Shown piece by piece: positions 28,330-52,204 of a stretch of DNA of 64,000 nt. Source of the stretch: Melieria omissa (lineage: Eukaryota > Arthropoda > Insecta > Diptera > Ulidiidae); NCBI GenBank assembly GCA_963971225.1, contig OZ020269.1, positions 102,961,067-103,025,066 of the forward strand, in the 5' to 3' direction. The notes beneath the pieces were generated by a model. The model searched no databases. It saw only the letters and a program-made list of their open reading frames with translations, and was not told the origin of the DNA. Both the position numbers and the translations under genes were made by a program. The number at the start of each line of letters is the position of its first letter. Position 1 is the stretch's first letter.

Positions 28330-29090
28330 CTAAGAACTGCTTCTAATGATTTTCACTAAAGTTGTATCAGAACTTCTTATTCATTTCAAACGGACAGAAA
28401 AACTATTAAGTAATCAATGTAATTTGAAATTATTTAATTTGTATTATTTAATTTTCATTATTTAATTTCAATTACTTATGTTAATGTCATTAACTACACT
28501 TTTGCCTCACAACAATCTGTAAATAATATAAAATTAGTATTTAATGAACAAACAGTATTGTGTTAGAATTGCATCTAGGGTTCGAAAAAAGACGAGCGGA
28601 AAGACAGCAACAGCATGAAATTTTTCAATTTGATGGCTATTCAAATGACGGTAAGATTGTTTGGAGGTTTAAAAATTAATTACTAAAAACATATACAAAT
28701 AAATAAAAAAATATATAAATTATATTCAAAATCTAACTAAATGGCAACACTGGCATTGCTACTGCTACCACTGCAGTCGTTTACAATTAATTGGGATAAA
28801 GACTCCAATCCTTTAGATGACCTATTGACCTGATTAATTATTATATATGATATATTATTAGTAATTACAACAACTAAGTATTTATGAAGATAAACCATAA
28901 TAAAAAGAAAAACCATTAATTTTCAGTTCGTGATGTAACTTGACTTTTCATACATTTCGAACTTAAAAATTTCATTAAAAAATTCATAAATTCTTCATAC
29001 AATTCGGTGCTCAGAAATCTGCTCATATTAAAGGCTTTTATTGAATTAACTATTTTTGTTACTTAAATTCTCCCACTTAATGATTTATGG
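28330..29090. other. AT-rich spacer
   Basis: Nothing supported. ATGGCAACACTGGC at 28741 resembles a hAT end by chance; no partner was found. Confidence 0.3.
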
Positions 29091-30480: not shown

Positions 30481-30869
30481 GTTTGGTTGTGATATGAAGT
30501 AATTAAAAAATTGCTCTGGAAAAGCCTAAAATCGACATCAAATTGAACAATCGAGAAAAACATTTGTATGACAATTTTTGGAATGATGAATTGAATTGCA
30601 TTAACCCAAGATATTTAAGACTGTCTGCGAGTGAAAATACGTAACACAGTTATTTTAGTTATTTCTTGTAATTATGGTTGTAAACATAACTAAAAACGAG
30701 AAAAACTACACCTTTTCAAGTTGTATATCAGAAAATTTAACTTGTATTTCAGCGTTTAAAATTCTATTTTAGATTTTAAAATATAATTTAATTTGGGTTT
30801 CGACAATACATTTTGATTTTTGCTGTGTAGAAACCCAAAAGTTGACAACGTCACAAATCCGATCGTAGT

Positions 30870-30883
30870 GGGGGGGGGGGGGG
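30870..30883 (+). repeat. G14 homopolymer
   Basis: Fourteen G in a row, at the point where the sister repeat units have GTATGGGGGACGCCCC. Length may be affected by assembly. Confidence 0.7.
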
Positions 30884-30887
30884 TGCC

Positions 30888-31275
30888 CCTGATGATGAAT
30901 TTCTGAACTTTAGTTAATTTTGTATTTTTTGTAGTCAAGAATGTTGGCGATCGCTAAGTAAATTATTGAAATCGGTTCAATAGTTTTCGATATTTACAAG
31001 TTTCACAACCCCGATCGTATGGGGGACGCCCCCTGATGATGAATTTCTGAACTTTAGTTAATTTTGTATTTTTTGTAGTCAAGAATGTTGGTGATCGCTA
31101 AGTAAATTATTTAAATCGGTTCAATAGTTTTCGATATTTACAAGTTTCACAACCCCGATCGTATGGGGGACGCCCTCTGGTGATGAATTTGGGTACCTTA
31201 ATTAATTTTTTATTTTTTGTACTCAAGAATGTTAGCGATCGCTGAATAAATGATTGAAATCAGTTCAGTAGTTTC
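30888..31275 (+). repeat. 144-bp tandem repeat, ~2.7 units
   Basis: Unit starts (G(A/G)TGATGAATTT) at 30891, 31035 and 31179. Units share GTAGTCAAGAATGTTGG.GA, TCGGTTCAATAGTTTTCGAT and CACAACCCCGATCGTATGGG. The single-copy version in module B is at 36050-36150. Confidence 0.9.
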
Positions 31276-31972
31276 CGAGATGCGATGTTTTCTCGCTTAC
31301 TTAACTACTACATTTGCAAATGGGGAGCCAATGGCCAGTTTTGTATGGCAGCCCCTTTAAGACTAGAAGTTAGCGGGTAGGTATGTTTGGAAGAAACATG
31401 CGGCAAAGAAAATAAATGGATGTCGGTCATACATTTGATACATCTGGGGGCAACATGGGAGCAATCTTAGCCTATTTTATAAAAACGACCATTTTGTATG
31501 GGAGCCCCATCAAGGGTTGGAGATAGGCGGTAAGTATGTTTGAAAGAAATGTTCAGTAAGGAAACCTAGAAAGGTCGGTCATATATTTTAACCCTCTAAG
31601 AGCAACTTCTGACCTGCTGTGGAGCAATTTGTCGAATTTCCCAGCTTTTTTGTGAACTTCGACCTCGATGCGACGCCATTTAGCCCCACCCTAGCACAAC
31701 AATTTTTTGGCTCATGCATTTTTTTACTAAACCGCATAAAACGAGATGTTGCGGAGCATCGAAATCGAAAAATTGTGCACTAAATCCATACATACATTCC
31801 TACTTAGCTGTCATTCCCGAACTGCCCAAAGCAGAACACAGCATCAGTAAGCGATATATGAACTCTCTCGATCCGTAAAATCGCTCTCAAGATCAAGGTG
31901 TGGTACCTTAACAAAGGCAAATAATCAATACACAACGCAAAATAATAAAAACTCTAAGCAGTGTGGAAACTG

Positions 31973-32147
31973 TGTGGAAAATCACAATTTTCTGTCTGTA
32001 AAAAAATGGTCTCTCTAACCGTAGAGAATCGATAAAGAATTACTTTGTTATATAATTCCGATAAGCGTCGTTAACGTATCAAATTTATATGCACTGCCGC
32101 CTCATAGCCATCTACGTATAAATACGGGGTTTCGAGCGTCAATTGTT
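31973..32147 (+). promoter_or_regulatory. Promoter of secreted-peptide gene 1
   Basis: TATAAATA at 32117-32124, with an initiator-like TCAATTG at 32139-32145 (TSS about 32141-32148). GATAAG is at 32060-32065 and the box TGTGGAAAATCACA at 31973-31986. All recur at the same relative places in the other two units. TGGAAAATCA resembles a Dorsal/NF-kB site (consensus GGGAAAATCC) with mismatches, and GATA boxes commonly pair with such sites in fly fat-body genes. Regulation by immune signalling is inference. Confidence 0.7.
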
Positions 32148-32197
32148 AGAATCGTTTTTCGCGAACGAAAAATCCTTTTCACTTCGAAAGTATCAAC

Positions 32198-32392
32198 ATG
32201 AAGGCCTTCAGTTTGATGACATTGGGAATAGTGGTACGTCTCAAATTTTTGAAAAATATTCATAAAAACTAACAAAAGTTGTAAATTTAGGTTGCAGCAT
32301 TGGCATTGCTACTGACGCCTGTAGATTCCAAATATTGTAACGTAGATAGCCATATCTATGACCCAAGGTGCTTTCCTAAATATCCTAATTAA
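32198..32392 (+). CDS. Short secreted peptide gene 1 (two exons, 45 aa)
   Basis: Exon 1 is 32198-32233 (12 codons), intron 32234-32290 (57 bp, GTACGT..TTTAG, phase 0), exon 2 32291-32392 ending TAA. The start sits in ATCAACATG. Residues 1-25 form a signal peptide (MKAFSLMTLGIV, then VAALALLLTPVDS) with a clean -3/-1 site (V.S). The mature peptide is KYCNVDSHIYDPRCFPKYPN: 20 residues, cysteines at 28 and 39 that could close one disulfide loop, and basic/aromatic/proline-rich. Product is presumably exported. Two paralogues lie downstream on the same strand, with a conserved signal peptide but unrelated mature parts. I do not recognise the family. A small immune or other extracellular effector is likely (inference from architecture and promoter motifs); a reproductive or salivary peptide is the alternative. 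Confidence 0.75.
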
Positions 32393-32424
32393 TGGGCGTA
32401 ACGCAATTTCTCCATCACTTGCTT

Positions 32425-32442
32425 AATAAAAAGAGGAATAAA
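32425..32442 (+). terminator. Polyadenylation signals of gene 1
   Basis: AATAAA at 32425-32430 and 32437-32442. The block ACTTGCTTAATAAAAAGAGG is shared with gene 3 (38662-38681). Confidence 0.7.
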
Positions 32443-32662
32443 CAACAACATTGTGTCTGGCTTCTTCAGCCAGGATTCAAAAGCAGGATTCACAGGAAAA
32501 TATGTATACTTCCTGTTAAATTGCAATAAAAGATTTGAAGTAAGAATAAAACGAAAGAAATTGTGTAGCCAAAGATATTTTCGGAAATACAGGTTGTCAA
32601 TGCAAAATCTGAACAAATTTGTTCCCATATTTAGCAGCACTCGAGGCTAAAAATCGTTCATT

Positions 32663-32753
32663 TTAACCCTTTCAGTCACAATGTCCAATATATTGGACTA
32701 CAGCCCATACAATTCATACAGAACGGGTTTATTTTCATGTCGGAAAGGGTTAA
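32663..32753 (+). mobile_element. piggyBac-type MITE (91 bp with TTAA)
   Basis: TTAA at both ends (32663-32666, 32750-32753), with inverted termini CCCTTTCAGTCACA.. and ..TGTCGGAAAGGG. A homologous copy is at 60013-60102. TTAA duplication plus CCC-start ends are the hallmark of piggyBac-type elements. Confidence 0.75.
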
Positions 32754-32759
32754 TGCAAG

Positions 32760-34615
32760 CAGTTTAAATGATTTCAAACTAGACTGCTGATAGGTCCATT
32801 GATCCTGTTTGTTTGTCGAATGACTTGTCACTTGTAGATTGGTCTGAATGCTGGTGGTACTCTTCAGTTGATGATAAATTGAATATGCTGATTGATAAGA
32901 TTTCCAAATTTTTTGACACTCATGTGCCAATACGTACACGTCGCGTCATCAATGGCAGCTGTCCTTGGTTTACTGCTGCAGTGAAACTGGCCCCAAAGAA
33001 GCAAATGGAAGAGAAATCCAACTGACTACAATTGGGAGATGCACTGTAGGGCTAGGAATGAAGCTGTTTCTATATTCAGAAAGTCCAAAAAGAATTTCTT
33101 TAGCTCTAAGCTGCGTCCTTCTCTACCGCCCAAGCAGCTTTGGAATAACCTGAAAAGTGTTGGAGTGTGCAGTAAAAATTCGGATACCTCTTGTCTTGAC
33201 CCTGATCTACTAAATGATTACTTTGTTGCCAGTTCAGTGTCTAGCTCGTCTTGCTGCACGCCTAAACTGTGTTCATTAGATAGACTTGCCGTCTCCCCTT
33301 GTAGTTTTCAGTTTGTCACTGTTAGTGAACTTGATGTGATTCGCTGCATCAATGAAATAAACTCAAATGCTGTTGGTGAGAATGGGATTGCCATCAAATT
33401 TATTTAGCTTATTCTTCCCTATGTTCTTGGTACCCTCACGCTTATAATAAATCACTGCTTCACAAGTTCGTGTCTCCCGGAAATTTGGAAGGTGGGTACA
33501 ATTGTTCCTGTAGCGAAGAAATCAGCTGCTTCACATCCGGGTGACTTCCGACCTATCAGCATATTGTCCTCACTCTCCAAAGTCTTCGAATCTCTCATGG
33601 CTGAACAGATCTCTAGTCCCATTGACATGTTTGCACTAATGTCACCCCATCAATCAGGTTTCCGTCCGGCGCATAGTTGTTCCACAGCTATTATCAAAGT
33701 CCTGGACGACATAAGAATACCTTACGACCTTGGCAAGGTTACCTTACTGTGTTTGTTGGATTTTTCTAAGGCATTTGACTGCCTAAATCATTCAATCCGG
33801 TGTCAAAAGCTCAAATGTTACTTTGGGTTTGCGGATAGTGCGGTAAGACTTTTGGAAAGTTATCTACATGGCCAATCTCAGAGGGTTAGGGTTGGGTGTA
33901 ACTTCCCCTCAAGGCTCAGTACTTGGTCCGCTCCTTTTCACTATGTTTATAAATGACATTTTCAGTGTTTGTAGCCATGTGTCTATGCTTGCATATGCGA
34001 ATGACATCCAACTTTATCTGTCTAGGCCTGTAGGTCTTGTTGAGGACTTATGTGTGAGGATAAATGAAGATCTATGCGCCATTTATAGATGGGCCTGCGA
34101 GAACCAACTCAAGCTTAATCCACTAAAGTCTTATGTTCTTCCGGTTTCCAAATCACCGCTCTCCTTTTGTGATGTTCCTCCAATTTATCTCAATGGTTCT
34201 CAGCTGCAGTTCGTGGACCGGATCACTAATCTTGGCTTCAGGATCAATTCCTAGTTGTCTTGTGAGGACCACATAAACTCGGTCGTAAGCAAAATATACC
34301 TGACGTTACGAAATCTTAGAATGACTGCTGCATTCGTACCATGACAGACAAGACGAAAAATGGTTTTACAGCTAATTTTACCCATAATTACATAGTCGGA
34401 AGTTGTTTACAGCAAACTTGAATCTAGGTCGGAACATAAACTGCTTATTGCCTACAACAATACTGCACGTTACGTCTATGGCTTAAAGAAAGGGGATCAC
34501 GTTTCTTCTTATAGTAGACAATTGCTTGGTCTTGACATCAAAAGCTACTTAGAAGCACGAAATTGTATGTTTTTACATAAACTTATACATACGAAACGTC
34601 CCGCCTACCTTTGGA
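32760..34615 (+). mobile_element. LINE relic with RT domain, between genes 1 and 2
   Basis: A 5'-truncated non-LTR element that starts in the linker after the endonuclease, runs through RT and ends in the post-RT region (LIHTKRPAYLW near 34585-34614), where hAT sequence begins. Several frameshifts and stops (33405, 33880, 34254, 34330). Jockey/CR1-group by RT motifs; clade not resolved. Confidence 0.75.
32813..34615 (+). pseudogene. Reverse transcriptase pseudogene
   Basis: Pieces in order: LVDWSECWWYSSVDDKLN..PWFTAAVK (linker before RT, 32830-32990); FRPISILSSLSKVFESLMAE (33548-33607); HQSGFRPAHSCSTAIIKVLD (RT block 3, ~33650); CLLDFSKAFDCLNH (RT block A, catalytic Asp, ~33755-33795); PQGSVLGPLLFTMFINDIF (block B, ~33905-33965); and YANDIQLYLS (~33990-34020). 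The last replaces YADD with YAND, so one catalytic Asp is lost. After 34254 the post-RT part lies in another frame (LEARNCMFLHKLIHTKRP). Inactive. Confidence 0.8.
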
Positions 34616-35090
34616 TACGTTGAAAATTACTGCAACGATGATAAAATTAAACAGTGGAGAAATGACAATGGTTGCATTCCGGATCGATGGACAGAAATAT
34701 TCAGTCATTTGTATGCTGAGAACTGCGACTACACCGCGATAGCCAGTTTGAATGAGTATATTTTGTGTTTGCCAGGGACGAGTGCTTCTGTTGAGAGAGT
34801 GTTTTCTGACGTTAATAAATCTTGGACGGAAGAAAAGTCCCGACCAAAACTCGACACTCTGAAAGCGATGCTCATGGTGAAATGCAACTTGACATATTCA
34901 TGTGTAGAGTTCTACCACTTTTTGAAAACAAAATCTGATTTACTCTGCCAAATTGCTAAAAAGGGGAAATATTCCACCATATGTGAGGCCAATGCGTGTG
35001 CGATTGACTTTGATGATGATGATGACGACGACGACAACGTTGAAGTTGTAGCAATGCTAGTTGATATGGATAAATATTAAAATATGTATT
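34601..35090 (+). pseudogene. hAT transposase C-terminal fragment
   Basis: The frame runs open from about 34601 to TAA at 35078-35080. It includes LCLPGTSASVERVFSDVNKS and the continuation WTEEKSRPKLDTLKAMLMVK, the hAT dimerisation region (LP.TSA.VERVFS.V...K..R..L....A.L). It ends in an Asp run (DDDDDDDD, GAT/GAC codons at 35011-35037). The catalytic Asp residues and BED finger are absent. No terminal repeats were found. It is fused to the end of the LINE relic near 34600-34615, which suggests one element inserted into or truncated the other. Confidence 0.7.
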
Positions 35091-35247
35091 GTTTTTCAGA
35101 AAATTTTAATTTTTAAACTTTGTATTTCCTTTTTTTATGCTTTTTTTCCAATTCGGAATCCCGCGAAATTGTCAAACCTAGTGGATTTATCCTTCTTTTC
35201 AGCCAAAACGAGGTGACATGGTTAGACATACTCGATGTTTGCAGCTG

Positions 35248-35518
35248 CCCAAAGCGATATATGAAATCTCTCGATCCGTAAAATCGCTCTCAAGATCAAG
35301 GTGTGGCACCTTAACAACGACAAACAATCAATTCACAACACTTAATTAAAAAACCTCTAAACACTCTGGAAACTGTGTGGAAAATCACAATTTTCTGTTT
35401 GTAAAAAATGGTCTCTCTAAGCATGGAGAATCGATTAAGAATAAGTTTGTTATATAATTCCGATAAGAGTCGTTAACGTTTGACATTTGTATACACTGCC
35501 GCCTCATAGTCATCTACG
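35248..35518 (+). repeat. Proximal upstream module of gene 2
   Basis: Starts CTGCCCAAAGCGATATATGA, matching 31825-31860 of module A. The distal part of the module is missing upstream, replaced by the hAT/LINE segment. Confidence 0.7.
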
Positions 35519-35549
35519 TATAAATACGGGTTTTCGAGTGCCAATTGTT
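35376..35549 (+). promoter_or_regulatory. Promoter of secreted-peptide gene 2
   Basis: TATAAATA 35519-35526, GATAAG 35462-35467 and TGTGGAAAATCACA 35376-35389, in the same order and spacing as gene 1. The initiator region is changed to CCAATTG. Confidence 0.65.
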
Positions 35550-35599
35550 TGAATCGTTTTTCGCGTACGAAAAAGTCTTTTCACTTCAAAACTATCAAC

Positions 35600-35785
35600 A
35601 TGAAGTCCTTCATTTTGATCACATTTGGAATAATGGTCTGAAATTTACAAAAAATTATTCATATAAACTAACAAAAGTTGTAAATTTAGGTTGCAGTGTT
35701 GGCATTTCTACTGACGCCTTTATAGTCAAGTAATACTGACGATATGGATTATTCTCCAAATGATTTTTACATCATAACTCAATAA
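35600..35785 (+). pseudogene. Secreted-peptide gene 2, stop codon at the signal-peptide end
   Basis: Exon 1 35600-35635 (MKSFILITFGIM), intron 35636-35689 (54 bp, donor weakened to GTCTGA, acceptor TTTAG), exon 2 from 35690 reading VAVLAFLLTPL then TAG at 35723-35725. The stop occupies the codon that is GAT in gene 1 and CAG in gene 3, just before the signal cleavage site. The frame behind it stays open for 19 codons (SSNTDDMDYSPNDFYIITQ, then TAA 35783-35785), rich in Asp and Tyr and with no cysteine. Promoter and polyadenylation sites remain. A single-base nonsense change (for example CAG to TAG) is the simplest reading; a sequencing error or read-through cannot be excluded. Confidence 0.7.
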
Positions 35786-35870
35786 AATGAGAAGTAAAAG
35801 ACAAAATGGCGTGAAGTCGGTGAAATGAAATTCTTCCTACACTTGCTTAATAAAAAAAGTAATAAAGAAT
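35781..35870 (+). terminator. Polyadenylation signals of gene 2
   Basis: AATAAA at 35781-35786 (overlapping the second stop), near 35849 and near 35861. The ACTTGCTTAATAAA block is conserved with genes 1 and 3. Confidence 0.55.
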
Positions 35871-35887
35871 CAAATTGCGTTTTTTTT

Positions 35888-36761
35888 CAAGTTATATATC
35901 AGATAATTTAACTTGTATTTCAGCGTTTAAAATTGTAATTCAGATTTTTAAATGTAATTTAATAGGGTTTCGACAATAGGTTTTGATTTTTGCTTAGTAG
36001 AAGCCCAAAAGTTGACAACGCCACAAATCCGACTCTATGGGGAACACCCTCTGGTGGCGAATTTCTGAACTTTAATTAATTTTGTATTTTTTGTACTCAA
36101 GAATGTTGCCGATTGCTAAATAAATGATTGAAATCGGTTCAGTAGTTTTCTCGCTTAATTAATTACTACATTTTCAAGTGGGGCGCCAATTGCATAGAAA
36201 ATGGCCAGTTTTGTATGGCAGCCCCCTTAAGACTTGGAGTTAGAGGGTAGGTATGTTTGGAAAAAATAAAATAAATGGGTGTCGGTCATACATTTGATAC
36301 ATCTGGGTGCAATCTGGGAGCAATCTTAGCCTATTTTATAAAAACGACCATTTTGTATGGGAGCCCTATCAAGGGTTGGAGATAGGGGATGAGTATGTTT
36401 GAAAGAAATGTTCAGTAAGGAAAACTAGAGGAGTCGGTCATAGATTTTAACCCTCTAAGAGCAACTTCTGACCAGCTGTGGAGCAATTTGTCGAATTTCC
36501 CAGCTTTTTTGTGAACTTCGGCAGAACACAGCGATATATGAATTCTCTCGATCCGTAAAACCGCTCTCAAGGTCAAGGTATGGTACAGCAACAAAACAAC
36601 GACAAACTATCAATTCACAACACTTAATTAAAAAACCTCTAAACACTCTGGAAACTGTGTGGAAAATCACAATTTTCTGTCTGTAAAAAAATGGTTTCTC
36701 TAAGCGTAGAGAATCGATAGAGAATGACTTTGTTATATACGTGTAATTTCGATAAGCGTCG
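35888..36761 (+). repeat. Upstream module of the gene unit, copy B (belongs to gene 3)
   Basis: Direct repeat of module A, with one copy of the 144-bp unit and without the ~160-bp insert at 31667-31840. It keeps TGTGGAAAATCACA at 36658-36671 and GATAAG at 36751-36756, and is then cut by the Transib-like element at 36762. Confidence 0.8.
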
Positions 36762-38318
36762 CACGTTGGGAAAAAACAGGCAAAAACACTCGCATTGGAG
36801 GAAATCCAAAAGTTGCGAATCTGAATTTTTTTTATATTATTTTCACTTCTAGCAAATTATCGTTAACAAGGCTGTCTTCAGATGCCCGTAGAATCTATAT
36901 TTTTTAATGAAATCCCATAATTTTTCACATGTGGGGTTATGATATTTAACTAATTAATATACCAAAAAATTGTATTTCAAAAATGTTTATTTTGACAAAA
37001 AACAAATATCTTACCTTTTCCTAATTTTTTGATAAAAATGAGAAAATTCGGGATTTTCTGTGGACTGTAACTTTTGAGATTCCACAGAATTCCACGAAAT
37101 ACGTATACGCTCATTAGGTGGGACGTTCAGCTAAATGATGGTACCAAACTCATCTGCGGAGTCTTGCGACTAAATGAATGCGAGCAATTTTCGCATGACA
37201 ACCCAAGCACTTTTTGTACTCAGTTCTGGTGCGCAACGATATATTTTTAATTGCTGAGCAAACCTACAACATATGAAAAACAGCAAGGCTGTTGTTGAAA
37301 GGAATAAATATGTATTTAATGTATAGAATTGAGTTATGTACATATATATCGCATTGATTTATATATGTCCGTCTGTTAATATGTCTTCCAATTCGTCTGT
37401 CTGATGTAAGGTATTCACAATTGCTTTCGAAAAAGTTGAAACACGAAACTGAAATTTCGTACAAACACTTTGGAAATCACGAGAACAACATATTGCCTAA
37501 AATGGGCGTGGTTTGCCCCTTCTTAACAGGGTTGCCATATAGAGATATTTTGCAAAATATGAACTTTTAAATATTTACCGTCCGTTTAGGGATATTTTTG
37601 TCTGGAAATAGGTGTGACATGCCTCTTTAACCCCTTGAGATACATAATAAGTCATTAGTTTAACTTTTAGTGAGAAAAGTTATACTTGTCAGTTAACCTT
37701 TTCCGTGCTTTATAAAAGTAAATAAATAGTTTAGATTGTTTTAAGAAAGAGTTTGCCTACTTTTATAAAAGTGGGCTTAGTGTCTCTAAAGAACATTTTA
37801 ATGCATGACAGCAAAATTGTAGCTTATTTTAATATTGTTAAAAATAAAGTCTGTATGGAGAGTAGGCGTGTCCGTGGGCGAATTTTTTTCATTTTCGGAA
37901 TAAATCATCTTCTACTTATGGGAAACCGTTATGCGAAAATGCAATCTTTTATCTTTTTTATTTCCGAAGTTATTAAATCTTTTGTTGTACATTCGGAAAA
38001 CATAAACCATGCTGCGAAAAAGTGCTCAAATTAAGAAACCCTAAAACACGTGTAACTTTATTTTTGATCTTCTTTGATAATCAGTTATCAGTTATTGACT
38101 TATATTTTTTGCTTTTGTTTATGCATATTTCTTAAACTCTTAACTTCCGACTGTAGGGTACCAGCTCCTGGTAGGGGAAATAAAAAAAAATATACCATAC
38201 AATTCTCTGAAGAATTCTTAAGAAAATAACGAAATTTTAGTTCTCTAGTTCAAAAACTATAGATTCTAAAGCTCAAAACAGGCGATGCGAGCGTTTTTGC
38301 CTGTTTCTTCCCAACGTG
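36762..38318 (+). mobile_element. Transib-like non-autonomous element (1,557 bp) in the gene 3 promoter
   Basis: Inverted ends CACGTTGGGAAAAAACAGG.. (36762-36795) and complement (38285-38318) match over 34 bp with two mismatches. It is flanked by a 5-bp direct repeat CGTCG (36757-36761, 38319-38323). The uninterrupted paralogous sites at 32060-32076 and 35462-35478 read GATAAG(C/A)GTCGTTAACG and prove the insertion. A CAC start, 5-bp duplication and CGNCG target fit Transib, the superfamily related to the RAG1 recombinase. No transposase frame was found inside. Superfamily assignment is from end structure only. Confidence 0.8.
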
Positions 38319-38400
38319 CGTCGTTAACGTTTGACATTTGTATGCACTGCCGCCTCATAGCCATCTACGTATAAATACGGTTTTTCGAGCGTCAATTGTT
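38319..38400 (+). promoter_or_regulatory. Core promoter of secreted-peptide gene 3
   Basis: CGTCGTTAACGTTTGACATT then TATAAATA at 38370-38377 and initiator TCAATTG at 38392-38398. The GATA and Dorsal-like boxes that sit within ~145 bp of the TATA box in gene 1 are 1.6-1.7 kb away here because of the inserted element. Confidence 0.7.
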
Positions 38401-38450
38401 AGAATCGTTTTTCGTGTACGAAAAAGCCTTTTCACTTCGAAAGTATCAAC

Positions 38451-38631
38451 ATGAAGTCCTTCAGTGTGATGACATTCGGAATAATGGTAAAATAATTGTA
38501 AAATAAAAAAAAGATATTCATATAAACTAAAAAAGTTGTAAATTTAGGTTGCAGCGTTGGCATTGCTACGGACGCCTGTACAGTCGCGAAAGCATTACGG
38601 TCCACCATTTCCACTAGAATATCTTGATTAG
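38451..38631 (+). CDS. Short secreted peptide gene 3 (two exons, 39 aa)
   Basis: Exon 1 38451-38486 (12 codons), intron 38487-38547 (61 bp, GTAAAA..TTTAG, phase 0), exon 2 38548-38631 ending TAG. Residues 1-25 are the family signal peptide (MKSFSVMTFGIM, then VAALALLRTPVQS). An Arg at position 20 interrupts the hydrophobic stretch that is Leu in gene 1 and may weaken export. The predicted mature peptide is RKHYGPPFPLEYLD: 14 residues, no cysteine, basic start, PP and aromatic residues, acidic end. It shares nothing with the mature part of gene 1, although intron, signal peptide and 3' UTR are nearly the same. The frame is intact, so it may be expressed, but its promoter is split by a 1.56-kb element. 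Function unknown; secreted effector is inference. Confidence 0.7.
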
Positions 38632-38669
38632 CTCCCTTGGGAGTAACGCAAATGCTCCTACACTTGCTT

Positions 38670-38694
38670 AATAAAAAGAGGAACAAACAATAAA
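38670..38694 (+). terminator. Polyadenylation signals of gene 3
   Basis: AATAAA at 38670-38675 and 38689-38694, in the same ACTTGCTTAATAAAAAGAGG block as gene 1. Confidence 0.7.
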
Positions 38695-44382: not shown

Positions 44383-46393
44383 TAAGAATGACGACCAAAA
44401 AACCAATGGTACGATGAAGAGTGTCGCGCAGCCACTGCAGTGAAGAATGCTGCATACAAGAAGACCCTGCAGTCGGCCGCCACGCGAGCCTTGACAGAAA
44501 AATACCGGGAGGAGAGGAAGAAAGAGAGGTGCCTTTTTAGACGCAAGAAACGGGAGCAAGAAAGGCGCGAGCGTGAAGAAATCGAGGAGTGCAGGAGCAG
44601 GAATGACGCCCGAAAATTCTTCCAAAAAGTTAAGCGTCTTACGGAAGGATTTAAGCCTGGGGCATCTTCTTGCAGAGACGAAAACGGGGATCTGGTTACG
44701 GATGCGCAGGGTGTGCTGAGGTTGTGGAAGGAGCACTTCACCAAGCTGCTCGCAGGCGACGAAAGGAACAATACCGCCAGTGGTGAAGATGTCCAGATGG
44801 CACCAATCGACGACGACGGTGTGGATGTGCCACCGCCCAGCCATGACGAGGTCCGGGTCGCTATCCAGCGACTCAAGAACAACAAAGCTGCAGGGCCAGA
44901 TGGGCTACCAGCTGAATTGTTCAAGGCCGGCGGCGGTGAGCTGATTGGGTGCATGCATCAGCTCATTTGCAAAATATGGCTGGAGGAACGAATGCCCAAC
45001 GATTGGAACCTCAGTGCCCTTTGTCCTGTGCTGAAGAAAGGCGACCCAACAATATGCGCCAACTACAGGGGTATCAGCCTACTTCCCATTGCATACAAGG
45101 TCCTGACGAGCGTATTATGTGAAAGACTAAAGCCACTCGCCAAGGCGCTGATTGGACCTTATCAGTGCGGCTTTAGACCTGGTAAGTCCACCATCGACCA
45201 GATATTCACTCTACGCCAAATCCTGGAGAAGACCCATGAGAACCAAATCGATACACACCATCTCTTCATCGATTACAAGGCAGCATTCGATAGCCCGATA
45301 AGGGATCGCCTATATGCCGCATTGTCTGAACTTGGTATCCCTGCAAAGCTCGTTAGACTTTGCAGAGCGACGTTGAGCAATACGCGCAGCTCCGTCAAGG
45401 TTGGAAGTGACCTCTCCGACCCCTTTGATACCGTTCGAGGTTTCAGACAGGGCGATCCTTTGTCCTGCGACCTCTTCAACTTCACCATGGAGAGTGTGCT
45501 GCGCAAGGCCGGTGTACATCGTAATGGCACAATTTTCAACAAAAGTGTCCAGCTCCTTGCTTACGCTGATGATATTGATGTCATCGGACGTAACAAGCGA
45601 GATGTCACCGCTGCCTTTGCGGCTATCGAAAGAGAATCTGCCAAAATAGGTCTGGTGGTAAATGAGGGCAAGACGAAGTATATGCTGTCTACACGCAGGG
45701 ACTCGCAGCGGCTAGGGTCTCACGTCGAGGCCGACAGGTATGCTTTTGAAGTTGTCAAGGAATTCGTCTACCTTGGCACCGCCATCAACAGCAGCAATGA
45801 TGTCAGTCTGGAGATAAAGCGAAGGATAACTCTTGCCAACAGGTGCTACTACGGTCTCGGTAGGCAATTGAGAAGTAGAGACCTCTCTCGACCGACAAAA
45901 CTTTCACTCTATAGGACGCTTATCTTGCCCGTGCTCCTCTATGGCGCTGAAGCATGGACAATGACACGAAACGACATAGCGGCCCTTGGAGTGTTCGAGA
46001 GGAAGGTGCTTCGCAAAATCTTCGGCCCTGTTCGGGTTGGTGACGACTATCGCATACGAACCAATAACGAGCTGTATGAGCTGTATAAGGACATGGACGT
46101 AGCGCAGCGAATTAACATCCAGCGGGTACGCTGGCTCGGTCATGTCTGCCGCATGGACGACGAAGCTCCGGCGAAAAAGGTATTCGATGCGATGGTTGGA
46201 GGTCGACGGCGAAGAGGGAGGCCGTGTCTCCGGTGGAAGGACCAAGTGGAAGAGGCCCTGGTATCTCTTGGTGTGACCAACTGGAGAAGGCGCGCGCGAA
46301 GCAGAGGCGCCTGGAGAGAAGTTTTGCGGCAGGCCGTAACCCGATAACGGGTTGTTATGGCCAGTTAAGTAAGTAAGTAAGTAAGAATGACGA
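44383..46393 (+). mobile_element. Recent 5'-truncated LINE insertion with 12-bp target duplication
   Basis: TAAGAATGACGA at 44383-44394 and again at 46382-46393 flanks the element (part of the repeat overlaps the TAAG tail). The 3' end is GGCCGTAACCCGATAACGGG TTGTTATGGCCAGTTAAG followed by (TAAG)n. The endonuclease half is missing, as expected from abortive target-primed reverse transcription. Older copies of the same 3' end lie at 9673-9890 (minus), 24334-24606 and 59045-59205. Confidence 0.9.
44407..46347 (+). CDS. Reverse transcriptase of a non-LTR retrotransposon (5'-truncated, open frame)
   Basis: The frame is open from TGG at 44407 (WYDEECRAAT) to TAA at 46345-46347, with no native start because the element is truncated. 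Numbering from 44440: a charged linker (1-130), the RT entry block NNKAAGPDGLPAELF (~147), FIDYKAAFD (276-284, first catalytic Asp 278), FRQGDPLSCDLFNF (~337), YADDID (375-380, both catalytic Asp intact), and the C-terminal basic region RLGHVCRMDDE-like / GGRRRRGRPCLRW (~565-600), ending near LRQAVTR. This is the endonuclease-RT type common in insect genomes, RTE-like by motif style; clade is not certain. It would copy its RNA at the target site but lacks its endonuclease. No internal stop, so it inserted recently. Confidence 0.88.
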   Translation, partial: WYDEECRAATAVKNAAYKKTLQSAATRALTEKYREERKKERCLFRRKKREQERREREEIEECRSRNDARKFFQKVKRLTEGFKPGASSCRDENGDLVTDAQGVLRLWKEHFTKLLAGDERNNTASGEDVQMAPIDDDGVDVPPPSHDEVRVAIQRLKNNKAAGPDGLPAELFKAGGGELIGCMHQLICKIWLEERMPNDWNLSALCPVLKKGDPTICANYRGISLLPIAYKVLTSVLCERLKPLAKALIGPYQCGFRPGKSTIDQIFTLRQILEKTHENQIDTHHLFIDYKAAFDSPIRDRLYAALSELGIPAKLVRLCRATLSNTRSSVKVGSDLSDPFDTVRGFRQGDPLSCDLFNFTMESVLRKAGVHRNGTIFNKSVQLLAYADDIDVIGRNKRDVTAAFAAIERESAKIGLVVNEGKTKYMLSTRRDSQRLGSHVEADRYAFEVVKEFVYLGTAINSSNDVSLEIKRRITLANRCYYGLGRQLRSRDLSRPTKLSLYRTLILPVLLYGAEAWTMTRNDIAALGVFERKVLRKIFGPVRVGDDYRIRTNNELYELYKDMDVAQRINIQRVRWLGHVCRMDDEAPAKKVFDAMVGGRRRRGRPCLRWKDQVEEALVSLGVTNWRRRARSRGAWREVLRQAVTR

Positions 46394-46515
46394 TGCAACT
46401 TTGTGTGGTCAGTGAGACGAATGTAGATTTTTATATATTAAAAGTATGTATGAAAGTAGGAGAAGATCAGCTTAGGCCATCTAACCACTGAAGCACGCAA
46501 GAAAGATTCGGGAGT

Positions 46516-47962
46516 TTAAAAACTAAGACTAAGACTAAGACTAAGACTAAGGCTAAGACTAAGACTAAGACTAAGACTAAGACTAAGACTAAGACTAAGA
46601 CTAAGACTAAGACTAAGACTAAGACTAAGACTAAGACTAAGACTAAGACTAAGACTAAGATTAAGACTAAGACTAAGACTAAGACTAAGACTAAGACTAA
46701 GACTAAGACTAAGACTAAGACTAAGACTAAGACTAAGACTAAGACTAAGACTAAGACTAAGACTAAGACTAAGACTAAGACTAAGACTAAGATTAAGACT
46801 AAGACTAAGACTAAGACTAAGACTAAGACTAAGACTAAGACTAAGACTAAGACTAAGACTAAGACTAAGACTAAGACTAAGACTAAGACTAAGACTAAGA
46901 CTAAGACTAAGACTAAGACTAAGACTAAGACTAAGACTAAGACTAAGACTAAGACTAAGACTAAGACTAAGACTAAGACTAAGACTAAGACTAAGACTAA
47001 GACTAAGACTAAGACTAAGACTAAGACTAAGACTAAGACTAAGACTAAGACTAAGACTAAGACTAAGACTAAGACTAAGACTAAGACTAAGACTAAGACT
47101 AAGACTAAGACTAAGACTAAGACTAAGACTAAGACTAAGACTAAGACTAAGACTAAGACTAAGACTAAGACTAAGACTAAGACTAAGACTAAGACTAAGA
47201 CTAAGACTAAGACTAAGACTAAGACTAAGACTAAGACTAAGACTAAGACTAAGACTAAGACTAAGACTAAGACTAAGACTAAGACTAAGACTAAGACTAA
47301 GACTAAGACTAAGACTAAGACTAAGACTAAGACTAAGACTAAGACTAAGACTAAGACTAAGACTAAGACTAAGACTAAGACTAAGACTAAGACTAAGACT
47401 AAGACTAAGACTAAGACTAAGACTAAGACTAAGACTAAGACTAAGACTAAGACTAAGACTAAGACTAAGACTAAGACTAAGACTAAGACTAAGACTAAGA
47501 CTAAGACTAAGACTAAGACTAAGACTAAGACTAAGACTAAGACTAAGACTAAGACTAAGACTAAGACTAAGACTAAGACTAAGACTAAGACTAAGACTAA
47601 GACTAAGACTAAGACTAAGACTAAGACTAAGACTAAGACTAAGACTAAGACTAAGACTAAGACTAAGACTAAGACTAAGACTAAGACTAAGACTAAGACT
47701 AAGACTAAGACTAAGACTAGGACTAGGACTAGGACTAGGACTAAGACGAAGACTAAGACTAAGACTAAGACTAAGACTAAGACTAAGACTAAGACTAAGA
47801 CTTAGACTTAGACTAAGACTAAGACTAAGACTAAGACTAAGACTAAGACTAAGACTAAGACTAAGACTAAGACTAAGACTAGGACTAGGACTAGGGCTAA
47901 GACGAAGACTAAGACTAAGACTAAGACTAAGACTAAGACTAAGACTTAGACTAAGACTAAAA
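46516..47962 (+). repeat. TTAGTC/GACTAA hexanucleotide array, ~240 units
   Basis: About 1.45 kb of (GACTAA)n on the + strand, nearly pure. Two blocks of GACTAGGACTAGGACTAGG followed by AAGACGAAGAC lie at ~47718-47750 and ~47877-47907, 159 bp apart. Single variants GATTAA are at ~46657 and ~46791. The 489-codon Ser-Leu frame on the minus strand is a product of the repeat. Confidence 0.95.
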
Positions 47963-48044
47963 TCCAAAAATCTCAAAACTATCATTTCTTATTTTTCGCG
48001 GAGAAGACTGAAAATCATCGAAGCATACAACCGAACCAAACCCA

Positions 48045-48150
48045 CCAAGAACAAAAATTGCTGGTACAAAATGTGGTTTCAAACGGTATTCGGCTCAAAA
48101 GTTGTACGCAAAACCCGCTTTAAAGGTGACATCCTGTGTGCCACTGATTT
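48045..48150 (+). repeat. Dispersed ~110-bp repeat, copy 2
   Basis: ACAAAAATTGCTGGTACAAA, GGCTCAAAAGTTGTACGCAA, ACATCCTGTGTGCCACTG. Matches 12270-12375 (minus) and 49765-49905. Confidence 0.75.
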
Positions 48151-49700
48151 CTGCACACATATTTATTATTTTTGACGTCAAAATTGCTCTTCTGTTTGTT
48201 TGTCAAAACAGACCTCCGCCCGTCGGGATTGTAAATAAAATAATTTTCTTACAACAATTAAATTCAAATTTGTACCCAAAAATCTCAAAAATATCATTTA
48301 CAATAACATAAAAATATTAATAAAAATCAAAGCGTTGTCAGGTGCCATGAAAAGGCTGTCAACATTTGGTTATTAATAGCGCCGTAACGTTCCAACAACC
48401 AATCGCACTAAACACTAAATGAAGTCATCAAAACGCCAAACTTTACTTTGTTTTGGCTTTCTCTGTGTATGTGTGTGTGTGTACAATAAAAAATCTCGCC
48501 CGCCAAGCCTTAATTAATTCATTTAATGATTTCATTTAACGACAACCACCTGCAGCGTTAATGATGCTGTAGCCATATGTGGAATCAATTAATTTGTTTC
48601 CGCCATAATTGTAAATTGCCGCCGATGCTGTAAATATTTGCTGCCCGATTGCCGATTATAGTAACGATTAAAAAACACTAAAAATAAATAAAAGCAAAAC
48701 TTGTATGGCAACACAATCAAATTTTAATTACTGCACATAATTAGTTACATATGTACATATGAAAAAATTGAAACAATTTTATGAAAAAAAGTAGTAACTA
48801 ACAAAAAAATATAAATAAAATTTCTCTTCTAAAAAGGTGTGGGCCATGTTATGCTGAATTAGGACAATGCACTACAATTTCGTGTCATAAAATGTTAATG
48901 TATGTAAAGTGTTAGGCGGGACAGCACAGATATAACAACAAAGCAAACAACAACAAAAACAATGAAAGCGGCAACATTGTAGACGAAGCCGCAGTTGTAT
49001 TAAAACGAGTTTTGCAAATTAAAATTTCATTGCAATTAATTGAAAAAATTGTAACACACACACACACACACACACATACACAGATACACAATCAGCACAA
49101 CAGTGTCGCATGTGCTGGTCTGTGGCCGGCGCAGCAATTTGGCCGCACATTGTTGCAGTGTCGAGAGTTGATTGCAAGCAATTTATTTTATGCGCACACA
49201 CACGCATGTGTCCAGGCGGCACATGTGTCAGGGGACACAGAGGGGGGAATATTTAATTTTTAGCAAATTTAGTTTAGTTACAACAATTTTGCATGCAACA
49301 AATATGCGCGAGCCGCCAATGGACCAAACGTCCGACAAGCTTTGCTTTTTCTCTTTGCTGCTTTGCTGTTGGTGGTCTGCTAGCTAGCGGATATTTTGGC
49401 ACAGGCTGGCAACGCTCACAGCCGGGAGTGCAGTGTGCTTGGCGTGACATGTCGAACATGGCCGCAGGGCGCCGGGCATAAGCACGCATTGTGTAGAATT
49501 TATTATAAATCGTTGCAAATTCCAACTAGAAAATTTTCCATAGAAATGCTCTTGGTGGGAGGAAGCAAGTGATTGGGAGTGTGGTATGTTGGGCGGAATG
49601 TCTGTTTTCAAACATGTTCAAGTAAAACTCTTTGGTTTTGTTTGATGGACAGAGAAAGCAAAAATCTATTATTTATTAAAAGTATATGATTTGATCCAAT
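48150..49700. other. Unique DNA island with CA tract
   Basis: A TGTGTGTG run is at 48467-48482 and (CA)n at 49053-49080. Overlapping frames lack domains. Confidence 0.4.
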
Positions 49701-50931: not shown

Positions 50932-52204
50932 TACCAGGTATATCAGTATGAAGTAAGCCTCAAGATACAAAGGTTTCGATAGGGAATATTTGTTGTGAAC
51001 GAGCCTTAATGTTTTTTTGTTTTGTTGCTATGACATCTGTCAAGCATATTTAGTATACAACAAGTCATTGAACAAACAACATCATATTTTTTTATCGTGT
51101 TAAAAATATCGAATACATTACATTAAGTTTTTGTTTTTATTTGAAGAAAAGCGCTGCAGAGTCGCATCGAATGCTTGTCGAGGCATATGGTAATCATGCT
51201 CTATCAAGCACAACATGCAAAAGATGGTTTCAACGGTTCAGAAATAATGACTTTGATGTGAGAAATGAAGAACGTGGAGGACCACCAAAAAAGTTTGAAG
51301 ACGTCGAATTGCAAACGATATTGGATAAAGATGACACTTTGAGTCAACAGCAAATGGCAGAAATGAGAAATGTTAAATGTTTCACAAGCAACAAATTCTG
51401 TATGTTTAAAAGCTATGGGAAAGATCCAAAAGTGTGGAAAATGGGTGCCACATGAACTGAATGAAAGGCAGATGGAAAAACGAAAAAACACTTGTGAAAT
51501 TTTGCTTCAAAGACACGAAAGAAAATCAATTTTGCATCGAGTTGTTACTGGCGATGACAAATGGATCTATTTTAAGAATCCTAAACGGAAAAAATCATGG
51601 GTTAATCCGGGACAACCTTCAACAACGACTGCAAAACTAGATCGATTCGGCAAGAAGACAATGCTGTGTGTTTGGTGGGACCAGAGTGGCGTTGTGTTTT
51701 ACGAGTTGTTAAAACCTGGCGAAACCGTTAATACTGATCGCTACCGACAACAAATGATCAATTTGAACCATGCATTGATCGAAAAACGACCAGAATGGGC
51801 CAGAAGACACGGCAAGGTAATTTTGCTCCATGACAATGCACCTGCACACAAAGCAAGACGGGTTCAGGATACAATCAAAGCACTTGACTGGGAGCTGCTA
51901 TTCCACCCGTCGTATTCACCAGACTTGGCTCCTTCCGACTACCATTTGTTTTCATCGATGGGACACGCATTGGCTGAGCAGCACTTTGATTCCTACGAGG
52001 GAGTCGAAAATTGGGTGTCTGATTGGTTTGCTTCAAAAGACAAACAATTCTATTGGCGCGGTGTCCACAAATTGCCTGAAGGATGGACAAAATGTGTGGC
52101 TAGCAATGGTTAATACTTTGAATAAAATATTTTTTACTTTCCCATTAAAAATTAGTGTTTTATTTTCGCAAAAAAGGGCTCACTTCATACGGATATATCT
52201 GGTA
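50932..52204 (+). mobile_element. Complete mariner element (1,269 bp)
   Basis: Inverted ends CCAGGTATATCAGTATGAAG.. (50934 on) and complement ending ..ATATATCTGG (52202) match over ~25 bp with three mismatches. TA flanks at 50932-50933 and 52203-52204. It carries one transposase gene broken by a 7-bp duplication. Confidence 0.92.
51090..52113 (+). pseudogene. mariner (DD34D) transposase with 7-bp frameshifting duplication
   Basis: The DNA-binding half is open from about 51090 (no ATG visible) and reads LSFCFYLKKSAAESHRMLVE, then RGGPPKKFED and LSQQQMAEM. At 51358-51373 the text GAAATG AGAAATG shows a 7-bp tandem duplication that shifts the frame. The catalytic half resumes at 51370 and ends TAA 52111-52113. 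Numbered from 51370 it has VVTGDDKWIYF (Asp 62), ILLHDNAPAHKAR (Asp 155) and YSPDLAPSDYHLF (Asp 190). 34 residues lie between the last two Asp, the mariner DD34D signature. WVPHELNERQ is also present. All three catalytic residues survive, so the copy is young but inactive as written. Subfamily not assigned firmly (mellifera-like text). Confidence 0.9.

What the first reader, a model, noticed from the sequence alone, without database searches (positions are those of the whole stretch)
30713..38694. Cluster of three paralogous tiny secreted-peptide genes with conserved leaders and unrelated mature peptides
Sequence shows three same-strand two-exon units (32198-32392, 35600-35785, 38451-38631) sharing promoter, 12-codon exon 1, a 54-61 bp phase-0 intron, signal peptide and 3' UTR, while the mature parts have no similarity (two-Cys 20-mer; Asp/Tyr-rich 19-mer behind a stop; Cys-free 14-mer). 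Conserved leader plus hypervariable product is known from effector families such as host-defence peptides. I cannot match it to Bomanin, Daisho, Baramicin, cecropin or other fly families, so it may be undescribed.
Basis: partly seen in the sequence, partly recalled or inferred. Interest (0 to 1): 0.88.

Follow-up and report, generated by a model that had tools for sequence, protein, structure and literature searches.

The report
Hypervariable secreted-peptide gene family in fly
A fly genome carries a small family of tiny genes that share promoter, intron and export signal but mostly encode very different 12-20 residue peptides, the pattern expected of peptides caught in an evolutionary arms race; what they do is not known.

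Summary
Three two-exon units lie at the stated coordinates, 81-95% alike in aligned bases outside the mature part, while the peptide after the signal is close to unalignable. It is not a high-copy repeat: DNA searches of the 490-Mb genome give seven places, three here, three 0.27-0.42 Mb away on the same contig, one on another contig. A profile adds a diverged fourth window copy at 28615-28833. Five of eight copies are intact. Under standard alignments the mature part evolves 4.9-5.5 times faster than the intron and the leader 0.4-0.7 times as fast; very cheap gaps lower the mature excess to 1.2-1.8. No homologue appeared in Pfam (U1, U3), the PDB (U1) or 5.8 billion proteins. I read it as a lineage-restricted family of secreted peptides with a fixed frame and diversifying product. 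Host defence is possible but unsupported: promoter kB-like and GATA sites are at chance level. [quoted passage not shown]

The parts
32117..32124 (+). TATA box of unit 1 (TATAAATA)
   Evidence: 81-86 bp before the ATG in the five promoters scanned, U1, U2, L002, L003, L005; also at 38370 in unit 3
31849..32197 (+). Unit 1 promoter and 5'UTR, shared with the other copies
   Evidence: 88-95% of aligned bases identical to units 2 and 3; homology begins about 350-470 bp before the ATG in most pairs
32198..32233 (+). Unit 1 exon 1, MKAFSLMTLGIV
32234..32290 (+). Unit 1 intron, 57 bp, GTACGT..TTTAG, with ACTAAC
32291..32392 (+). Unit 1 exon 2: VAALALLLTPVDS then KYCNVDSHIYDPRCFPKYPN and stop
32393..32456 (+). 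Unit 1 3'UTR with AATAAA at 32425 and 32437
   Evidence: 81-86% of aligned bases identical between units
35252..35599 (+). Unit 2 promoter and 5'UTR
35600..35785 (+). Unit 2, dead copy: in-frame TAG in the signal peptide, donor GTCTGA; downstream SNTDDMDYSPNDFYIITQ
36530..36761 (+). Distal promoter of unit 3, stranded upstream of the inserted element
   Evidence: 84-87% to the unit 1 and 2 promoters
36762..38318 (.). 1557-bp inverted-repeat element inserted in the unit 3 promoter (ends CACGTTGGGA..TCCCAACGTG; 5-bp flanking copies CGTCG at 36757 and 38319)
38451..38486 (+). Unit 3 exon 1, MKSFSVMTFGIM
38487..38547 (+). Unit 3 intron, 61 bp, GTAAAA..TTTAG
38548..38631 (+). Unit 3 exon 2: VAALALLRTPVQS then RKHYGPPFPLEYLD and stop
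28615..28650 (+). U0, diverged copy, exon 1 MKFFNLMAIQMT, donor GTAAGA
   Evidence: Profile built without it: E 2e-8, best reversed-sequence decoy with that profile 5.4; read (the U0 row is one base off in exon 1)
28741..28833 (+). U0 exon-2-like part, MATLALLLLPLQS then FTINWDKDSNPLDDLLT; the AG acceptor at the homologous place is missing
30713..31661 (.). Repeat block with 144-bp tandem copies upstream of unit 1; a second copy at 35884-36520 lies between units 2 and 3

Best explanation
A small, recently expanded family of genes for short secreted peptides, evolving by birth and death. SHOWN: a shared two-exon frame; eight copies found, five intact and three broken; a leader slower than, and a mature part faster than, the intron under standard alignments. 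INFERRED: the intron is spliced; the signal peptide is cut after V-x-S; a 12-20 residue peptide is released outside the cell without further processing; the fixed promoter keeps copies in one expression programme while selection for change, partly through small insertions and deletions, replaces the product. The most likely reason is a partner that keeps changing, such as microbes, the female tract or the larval food plant. I cannot choose the arena firmly: given this explanation, about 0.35 immunity, 0.3 reproduction, 0.25 saliva or gut, 0.1 other.
For: Seven genome places with DNA probes plus U0. All 5 intact copies have a GTA donor and TTTAG acceptor; of the 3 broken ones, U2 and L004 have a GTC donor and U0 lacks the acceptor. 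V at -3 and S at -1 in 5 of 5 intact leaders (the rule is recalled). Relative rates in four distinct intact copies: mature 4.67-4.75, intron 0.86-0.96, exon 1 0.47-0.52, signal peptide 0.36-0.40; merging mature with intron costs 2dlnL 35-40. L002 vs L005: leader 2/75, intron 7/58, mature 16/39 differences. In five of the seven close copies the stop abuts the same 3'UTR word, at 63, 42 or 39 nt from the signal peptide, so net length changes kept the frame (only two independent changes, so modest evidence).
Against: No transcript or peptide evidence. With very cheap gaps, L002-L005 needs 6 events in the mature part (42 bp) against 7 in the intron (58 bp), 1.2 times per base, and four other pairs 1.6-1.8 times, so the excess depends on alignment; though for several pairs such alignments score hardly better than shuffled sequence. 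Among the leader's 25 codons, 8 of the 10 variable ones are replacements, four of them swaps between hydrophobic residues, so the leader shows no excess of silent change. Three of eight copies are dead; the rest could be decaying. Segment-wise quartets hint at exchange between copies, which could keep the frame artificially alike. Tree support is low at inner nodes other than the one joining L002-L005.
Confidence: 0.62

Rival explanations
1. Host-defence peptides of the haemolymph or gut, like the Toll-induced short peptides of Drosophila (odds given that the peptides are real).
For: Short secreted peptides in fly immunity are young and lineage-restricted: Bomanins are reported as restricted to Drosophila and close relatives (PMC6857651, passages); Ibin replaced Mibin with no significant mature similarity (PMC12882233, abstract and passages). 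Mature lengths here, 12-20 aa, are near the 16-aa Bomanin domain (PMC12894722, passages). One kB-like site with one mismatch sits at the same place in 4 of 5 promoters.
Against: That site is one per promoter against 0.4-0.6 expected and is inherited, not independent; Rel-like two-mismatch sites 0-3 against 1.1-1.5; WGATAR 0-1 against 1.5-1.6. No common domain or Ibin/Mibin motif in the mature parts. Intact peptides carry net charge 0 to +1.
Confidence: 0.35
2. Male or female reproductive-tract peptides (seminal fluid), diversified by sexual conflict (odds given that the peptides are real).
For: In medfly testes and accessory glands 33.5% of contigs had no database match, and 400 putative secreted peptides were found (PMC3469604, passages). 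Small-intron, fast-evolving secreted genes fit (recalled).
Against: No expression data here; the five peptide words tried occur in no paper of the library; no seminal peptide sequence was compared.
Confidence: 0.3
3. Saliva or gut peptides facing the larval food plant or its microbes, as in gall midges (odds given that the peptides are real).
For: Hessian fly SSSGP-1 has the same layout: conserved promoter, UTRs, intron and signal peptide, diversified mature part, tandem cluster with one inverted copy encoding an identical protein (PMC2955719, abstract, passages and section 7). Here L002 is inverted next to L003 with an identical predicted peptide.
Against: Mature coding regions are 252-484 nt in SSSGP-1 and 258-462 nt in SSSGP-2, here 39-63 nt with stop. 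The species and its diet are not known here.
Confidence: 0.25
4. Non-functional: decaying duplicates whose reading frames are relics, the mature part drifting through indels.
For: 3 of 8 copies broken; cheap-gap counts bring the mature rate near the intron rate in one of five pairs; no excess of silent change in the leader; TE-rich surroundings.
Against: 5 of 8 copies keep start, donor, acceptor, signal peptide and an in-frame stop; donors are damaged in two copies whose frame is also broken; leader slower than intron.
Confidence: 0.15
5. Part of a transposable element or other dispersed repeat.
For: One copy lies on another contig, and units sit next to repeat blocks.
Against: Seven DNA matches in 490 Mb (lower bounds by the tool's statement); pairwise homology ends at different places downstream (about +120 to +1200) rather than at fixed ends; U1 and U3 match no Pfam family.
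Confidence: 0.04

Closest known systems
Hessian fly SSSGP-1 and sister SSSGP families (Chen et al. 2010, PMC2955719; abstract, passages and section 7 seen)
   Same: Promoter, UTRs, intron and signal-peptide coding conserved while the mature coding part is super-diversified; clustered tandem copies plus one inverted copy with an identical product; the first intron lies in or at the end of the signal-peptide coding part.
   Different: Mature coding part here is 39-63 nt with stop against 252-484 nt in SSSGP-1; copies spread over about 0.42 Mb plus one elsewhere, rather than 15 kb; no salivary expression known; no sequence comparison with SSSGPs was made.
Drosophila Bomanins (PMC12894722 and PMC6857651, passages seen)
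   Same: Clustered genes for very short secreted peptides.
   Different: Bomanins share a conserved 16-aa domain; here the mature part is what varies. U1's two Cys are ten residues apart; the close-set Cys pair of Bomanins is recalled, not from a call.
Ibin/Mibin (PMC12882233, abstract and passages seen)
   Same: Short secreted fly peptides; related genes whose mature parts share no significant similarity.
   Different: KNHEEWXG and RPXTLPPN-type motifs are not present here; the change there is one replacement dated to about 55 million years ago.
Daisho (PMC6989431, passages seen)
   Same: Short secreted peptide pair.
   Different: Daisho1 and 2 mature peptides are shown aligned with identical residues; no sequence comparison was made here.

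Membership tests
SSSGP-like 'conserved frame, diversified product' kind | Noncoding parts and signal peptide conserved, mature coding part diversified | tested here: met
SSSGP-like 'conserved frame, diversified product' kind | Clustered copies | tested here: met
   7 of 8 found copies lie within about 0.42 Mb of C3; one on C1
SSSGP-like 'conserved frame, diversified product' kind | Intron in or at the end of the signal-peptide coding part | tested here: met
   phase 0 after codon 12 in the seven close copies, by sequence
SSSGP-like 'conserved frame, diversified product' kind | dN/dS above one in moderately diverged mature parts | not tested
   mature parts here are too short and poorly alignable; rate relative to the intron was used instead
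SSSGP families proper | Sequence relation to gall-midge SSSGPs | not tested
   no SSSGP sequence was fetched
SSSGP families proper | Expression in larval salivary glands | not testable with these tools
   no RNA data
Bomanin | Conserved 16-aa Bomanin domain in the mature peptide | tested here: not met
   mature parts of the copies share no 16-aa domain; no direct comparison with a Bomanin sequence was run
Ibin | N-terminal KNHEEWXG motif | tested here: not met
   absent from the mature peptides read against the motif given
Mibin | C-terminal RPXTLPPN/QRPXXPN/DF motif | tested here: not met
   absent from the mature peptides read against the motif given
NF-kB-regulated immune peptide | kB-type promoter sites above chance | tested here: inconclusive
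   one one-mismatch site in 4 of 5 promoters, at the same place, against 0.4-0.6 expected each (consensus recalled; U3 and L004 not scanned)
NF-kB-regulated immune peptide | Induction by infection | not testable with these tools
   no RNA data

The most novel reading that the evidence does not exclude
An undescribed family of fly peptides, 12-20 residues long, in which each gene copy keeps one promoter, intron and signal peptide but most carry a near-new product: an extreme short case of frame-and-payload evolution in which point changes and small insertions and deletions under selection rewrite almost the entire secreted peptide between paralogues whose introns differ by only about 9-21% (intact pairs with different products).
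Probability: 0.35. Interest if true: 0.65.

Novelty: new member of a known kind. Interest (0 to 1): 0.5.

Why it matters
If expressed, these genes would show that the conserved-frame, super-diversified-product mode described in gall midges also occurs in another fly with peptides of only 12-20 residues, small enough to synthesise and test one by one. They would give a natural series, from intact through dead copies, for asking how a secreted peptide is rewritten, and which partner drives it.

Tried and rejected
Pfam with U1 and U3: no family up to E 10. PDB with U1: three claudin-4 chains at E 2.1-2.4, chance. Rfam on the window and tRNA scan: nothing. Protein database with U1+U3: no candidate; with the four distinct intact peptides: one candidate, not scoring E 10. 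Genome-wide protein search with U1: itself plus three chance-level matches at E 1.45-3.02; it missed the other seven known copies, so it is a weak negative. Genome-wide DNA search with U0: itself and five short partial matches of 40-94 bp, not followed up; the DNA searches with U1 and U3 did not find U0, so other diverged copies may be missed. A weak profile match at C3:102571714 (E 0.07) translates to nothing like the leader. Viral contigs with a 24-base leader pattern: none. Bacterial-type promoter scan: uninformative. Promoter motifs: TCAAGGTCA (nuclear-receptor type, recalled) is exact in 3 of 5 promoters scanned (L002, L003, L005) and one mismatch off in U1 and U2; noted, not built on. 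Nine literature searches.

Dropped before counts: U0 was left out of the rate analyses because it is too diverged to align well outside the leader; U2, L003 and L004 were left out of the four-copy rates and kept in the seven-copy rates. U3 and L004 were left out of the promoter motif scan. 9,103 of the 200,000 fetched bases read N.
Full report
What is there. The three units are at the stated places. Unit 1 is exon 1 32198-32233, intron 32234-32290, exon 2 32291-32392; unit 2 is 35600-35785 with a 54-bp intron; unit 3 is 38451-38631 with a 61-bp intron. All three have TATAAATA 81 bp before the ATG, and unit 1 has two AATAAA signals after the stop. They are duplicates beyond doubt (E down to 5.5e-170).

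How alike. By segment, pairs of units are 88-93% alike in the promoter, 89-95% in the 5'UTR, 86-89% in exon 1, 89-92% in the intron, 82-87% in the signal peptide and 81-86% in the 3'UTR, over aligned bases; the mature part scores z 2.5 (U1-U2), 1.8 (U1-U3) and 0.0 (U2-U3) over shuffles. Another aligner setting gives 79-91% for the introns and 70-81% for the 3'UTRs of the same pairs, and 31-47% for the mature parts. With cheap gaps U1-U3 beats 493 of 500 shuffles, U1-U2 422 and U2-U3 110. So residual homology is visible in some pairs and lost in others.

More copies. DNA searches of the whole 490-Mb genome with units 1 and 3 give the same seven places: U1, U2 and U3 in the window; L003 with ATG at C3:102578552 (+), L002 at C3:102580871 (-) and L005 at C3:102725680 (+); L004 on C1 near 2800642. 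The tool states that such counts are lower bounds. A DNA profile of the seven, run on the window and 200 kb of C3, finds the six that lie on those stretches and one more, U0, at window 28561-28780, E 2e-8, when the best reversed-sequence decoy is 5.4. U0 reads MKFFNLMAIQMT, donor GTAAGA, then MATLALLLLPLQS-FTINWDKDSNPLDDLLT, but its acceptor AG is missing.

Products. Intact copies (5 of 8): U1 KYCNVDSHIYDPRCFPKYPN, U3 RKHYGPPFPLEYLD, L002 and L003 QKVHGQSPGIVPQ, L005 QRGVHIPPNREN. Broken (3 of 8): U2 (stop in the signal peptide, donor GTCTGA), L004 (start codon lost, donor GTCAAT, stop in the mature part), U0 (acceptor lost). All five intact copies have GTA donors and TTTAG acceptors. Every intact leader ends V-x-S, as signal peptidase prefers (rule recalled).

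Evidence that they code. In five of the seven close copies (U1, L002, L003, L004, L005) the stop abuts the same 3'UTR word, at 63, 42, 42, 42 and 39 nt from the signal peptide; in U3 (45 nt) six bases intervene and in U2 (57 nt) more. Lengths to an in-frame stop are multiples of three by construction, so the argument rests on the shared place of the stop and amounts to two independent frame-keeping changes: modest. Introns are 54, 57, 58 and 61 bp. Leader rates are 0.4-0.7 of the intron rate. Against: eight of the leader's ten variable codons are replacements, four of them between hydrophobic residues, two are silent.

Rates. With four distinct intact copies the mature part has relative rate 4.67-4.75, the intron 0.86-0.96, promoter 0.41-0.52, 5'UTR 0.63-0.70, exon 1 0.47-0.52, signal peptide 0.36-0.40 and 3'UTR 0.73-0.82; the mature/intron ratio is 5.5 (codon alignment) or 4.9 (nucleotide alignment), 2dlnL 40.4 or 35.1. 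With seven copies the ratio is 4.9 or 5.3, 2dlnL 53.6 or 64.8. The cleanest pair, L002-L005, differs at 2 of 75 leader, 7 of 58 intron and 16 of 39 mature sites. The caveat is real: an alignment with very cheap gaps explains that pair's mature part with one mismatch and five gaps, 14.3 events per 100 bp against 12.1 in the intron; the four other pairs so counted give 20.6-26.7 against 11.5-14.8. For several pairs such alignments are hardly better than those of shuffled sequence, so this lower bound is soft. Insertion and deletion are an important part of the picture, and positive selection is likely but not proved. Quartet counts with U1, U2, U3 and L002 favour different groupings for the two promoter pieces (4 to 2, and 0 to 4), a weak sign of exchange between copies.

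Surroundings. Between units 1 and 2 lie a degraded reverse transcriptase (33408-34251) and a hAT-type tail (34553-35077); a repeat block stands before unit 1 and again between units 2 and 3; a 1557-bp inverted-repeat element with 5-bp flanking copies CGTCG splits the unit 3 promoter. Homology between copies starts about 350-470 bp before the ATG in most pairs, farther for the C1 copy against L002, and ends at varying places downstream, about +120 to +1200, so this looks like segmental duplication rather than a mobile unit.

What it may do. Nothing here shows expression. In the five promoters scanned, kB-like sites with one mismatch number 0-1 against 0.4-0.6 expected, the one site being at the same place in four of five, and WGATAR sites 0-1 against 1.5-1.6 (consensus sequences recalled). 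The database searched for homologues holds Drosophila, Zeugodacus and Bactrocera proteins, so the negatives mean no annotated relative was reached; tiny genes are often not annotated. The pattern is known: Hessian fly SSSGP families have conserved promoter, UTRs, intron and signal peptide with super-diversified mature parts, and an inverted copy with an identical protein (PMC2955719), as L002 and L003 have here. Fly immune peptides offer another model (PMC12882233, PMC6857651, PMC12894722), seminal peptides a third (PMC3469604). I commit to a secreted diversifying peptide family at 0.62, with the arena open.

Verdict. Observation confirmed and extended; interpretation partly supported; a new family of a known kind.

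Noticed in passing
window 36762-38318: A 1557-bp element with inverted-repeat ends CACGTTGGGA..TCCCAACGTG and 5-bp flanking copies CGTCG, which recalls Transib-type elements (recalled); it moves the distal promoter of unit 3 1.56 kb away.
   Followed up: partly
L004 (C1 about 2799850-2800370): The C1 copy has two tandem copies of the family's distal promoter segment before its gene part.
   Followed up: no
C3:102578552 and 102580871 (L003, L002): Inverted pair, 96% identical over about 920 bp, with identical predicted peptides but about four differences in the 58-bp intron.
   Followed up: partly
promoters at about -310 to -321 in U1, U2, L002, L003, L005: TCAAGGTCA, exact in L002, L003 and L005 and one mismatch off in U1 and U2, 0.3-0.5 expected by chance with one mismatch allowed; resembles an FTZ-F1 site (recalled).
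   Followed up: no
window 30877-31308: Three tandem 144-bp repeats with a fourth copy at 36039.
   Followed up: no
window 44392-46347: 651-aa open reading frame of a LINE-type reverse transcriptase, 77% identical to its best database match.
   Followed up: partly
window 46467-48175: Long array, apparently of a six-base unit, open in several frames on both strands (KTKT/RLRL/LVLV/LSLS).
   Followed up: no
window 51367-52110: Mariner-type transposase ORF (Transposase_1 and DDE_3).
   Followed up: partly
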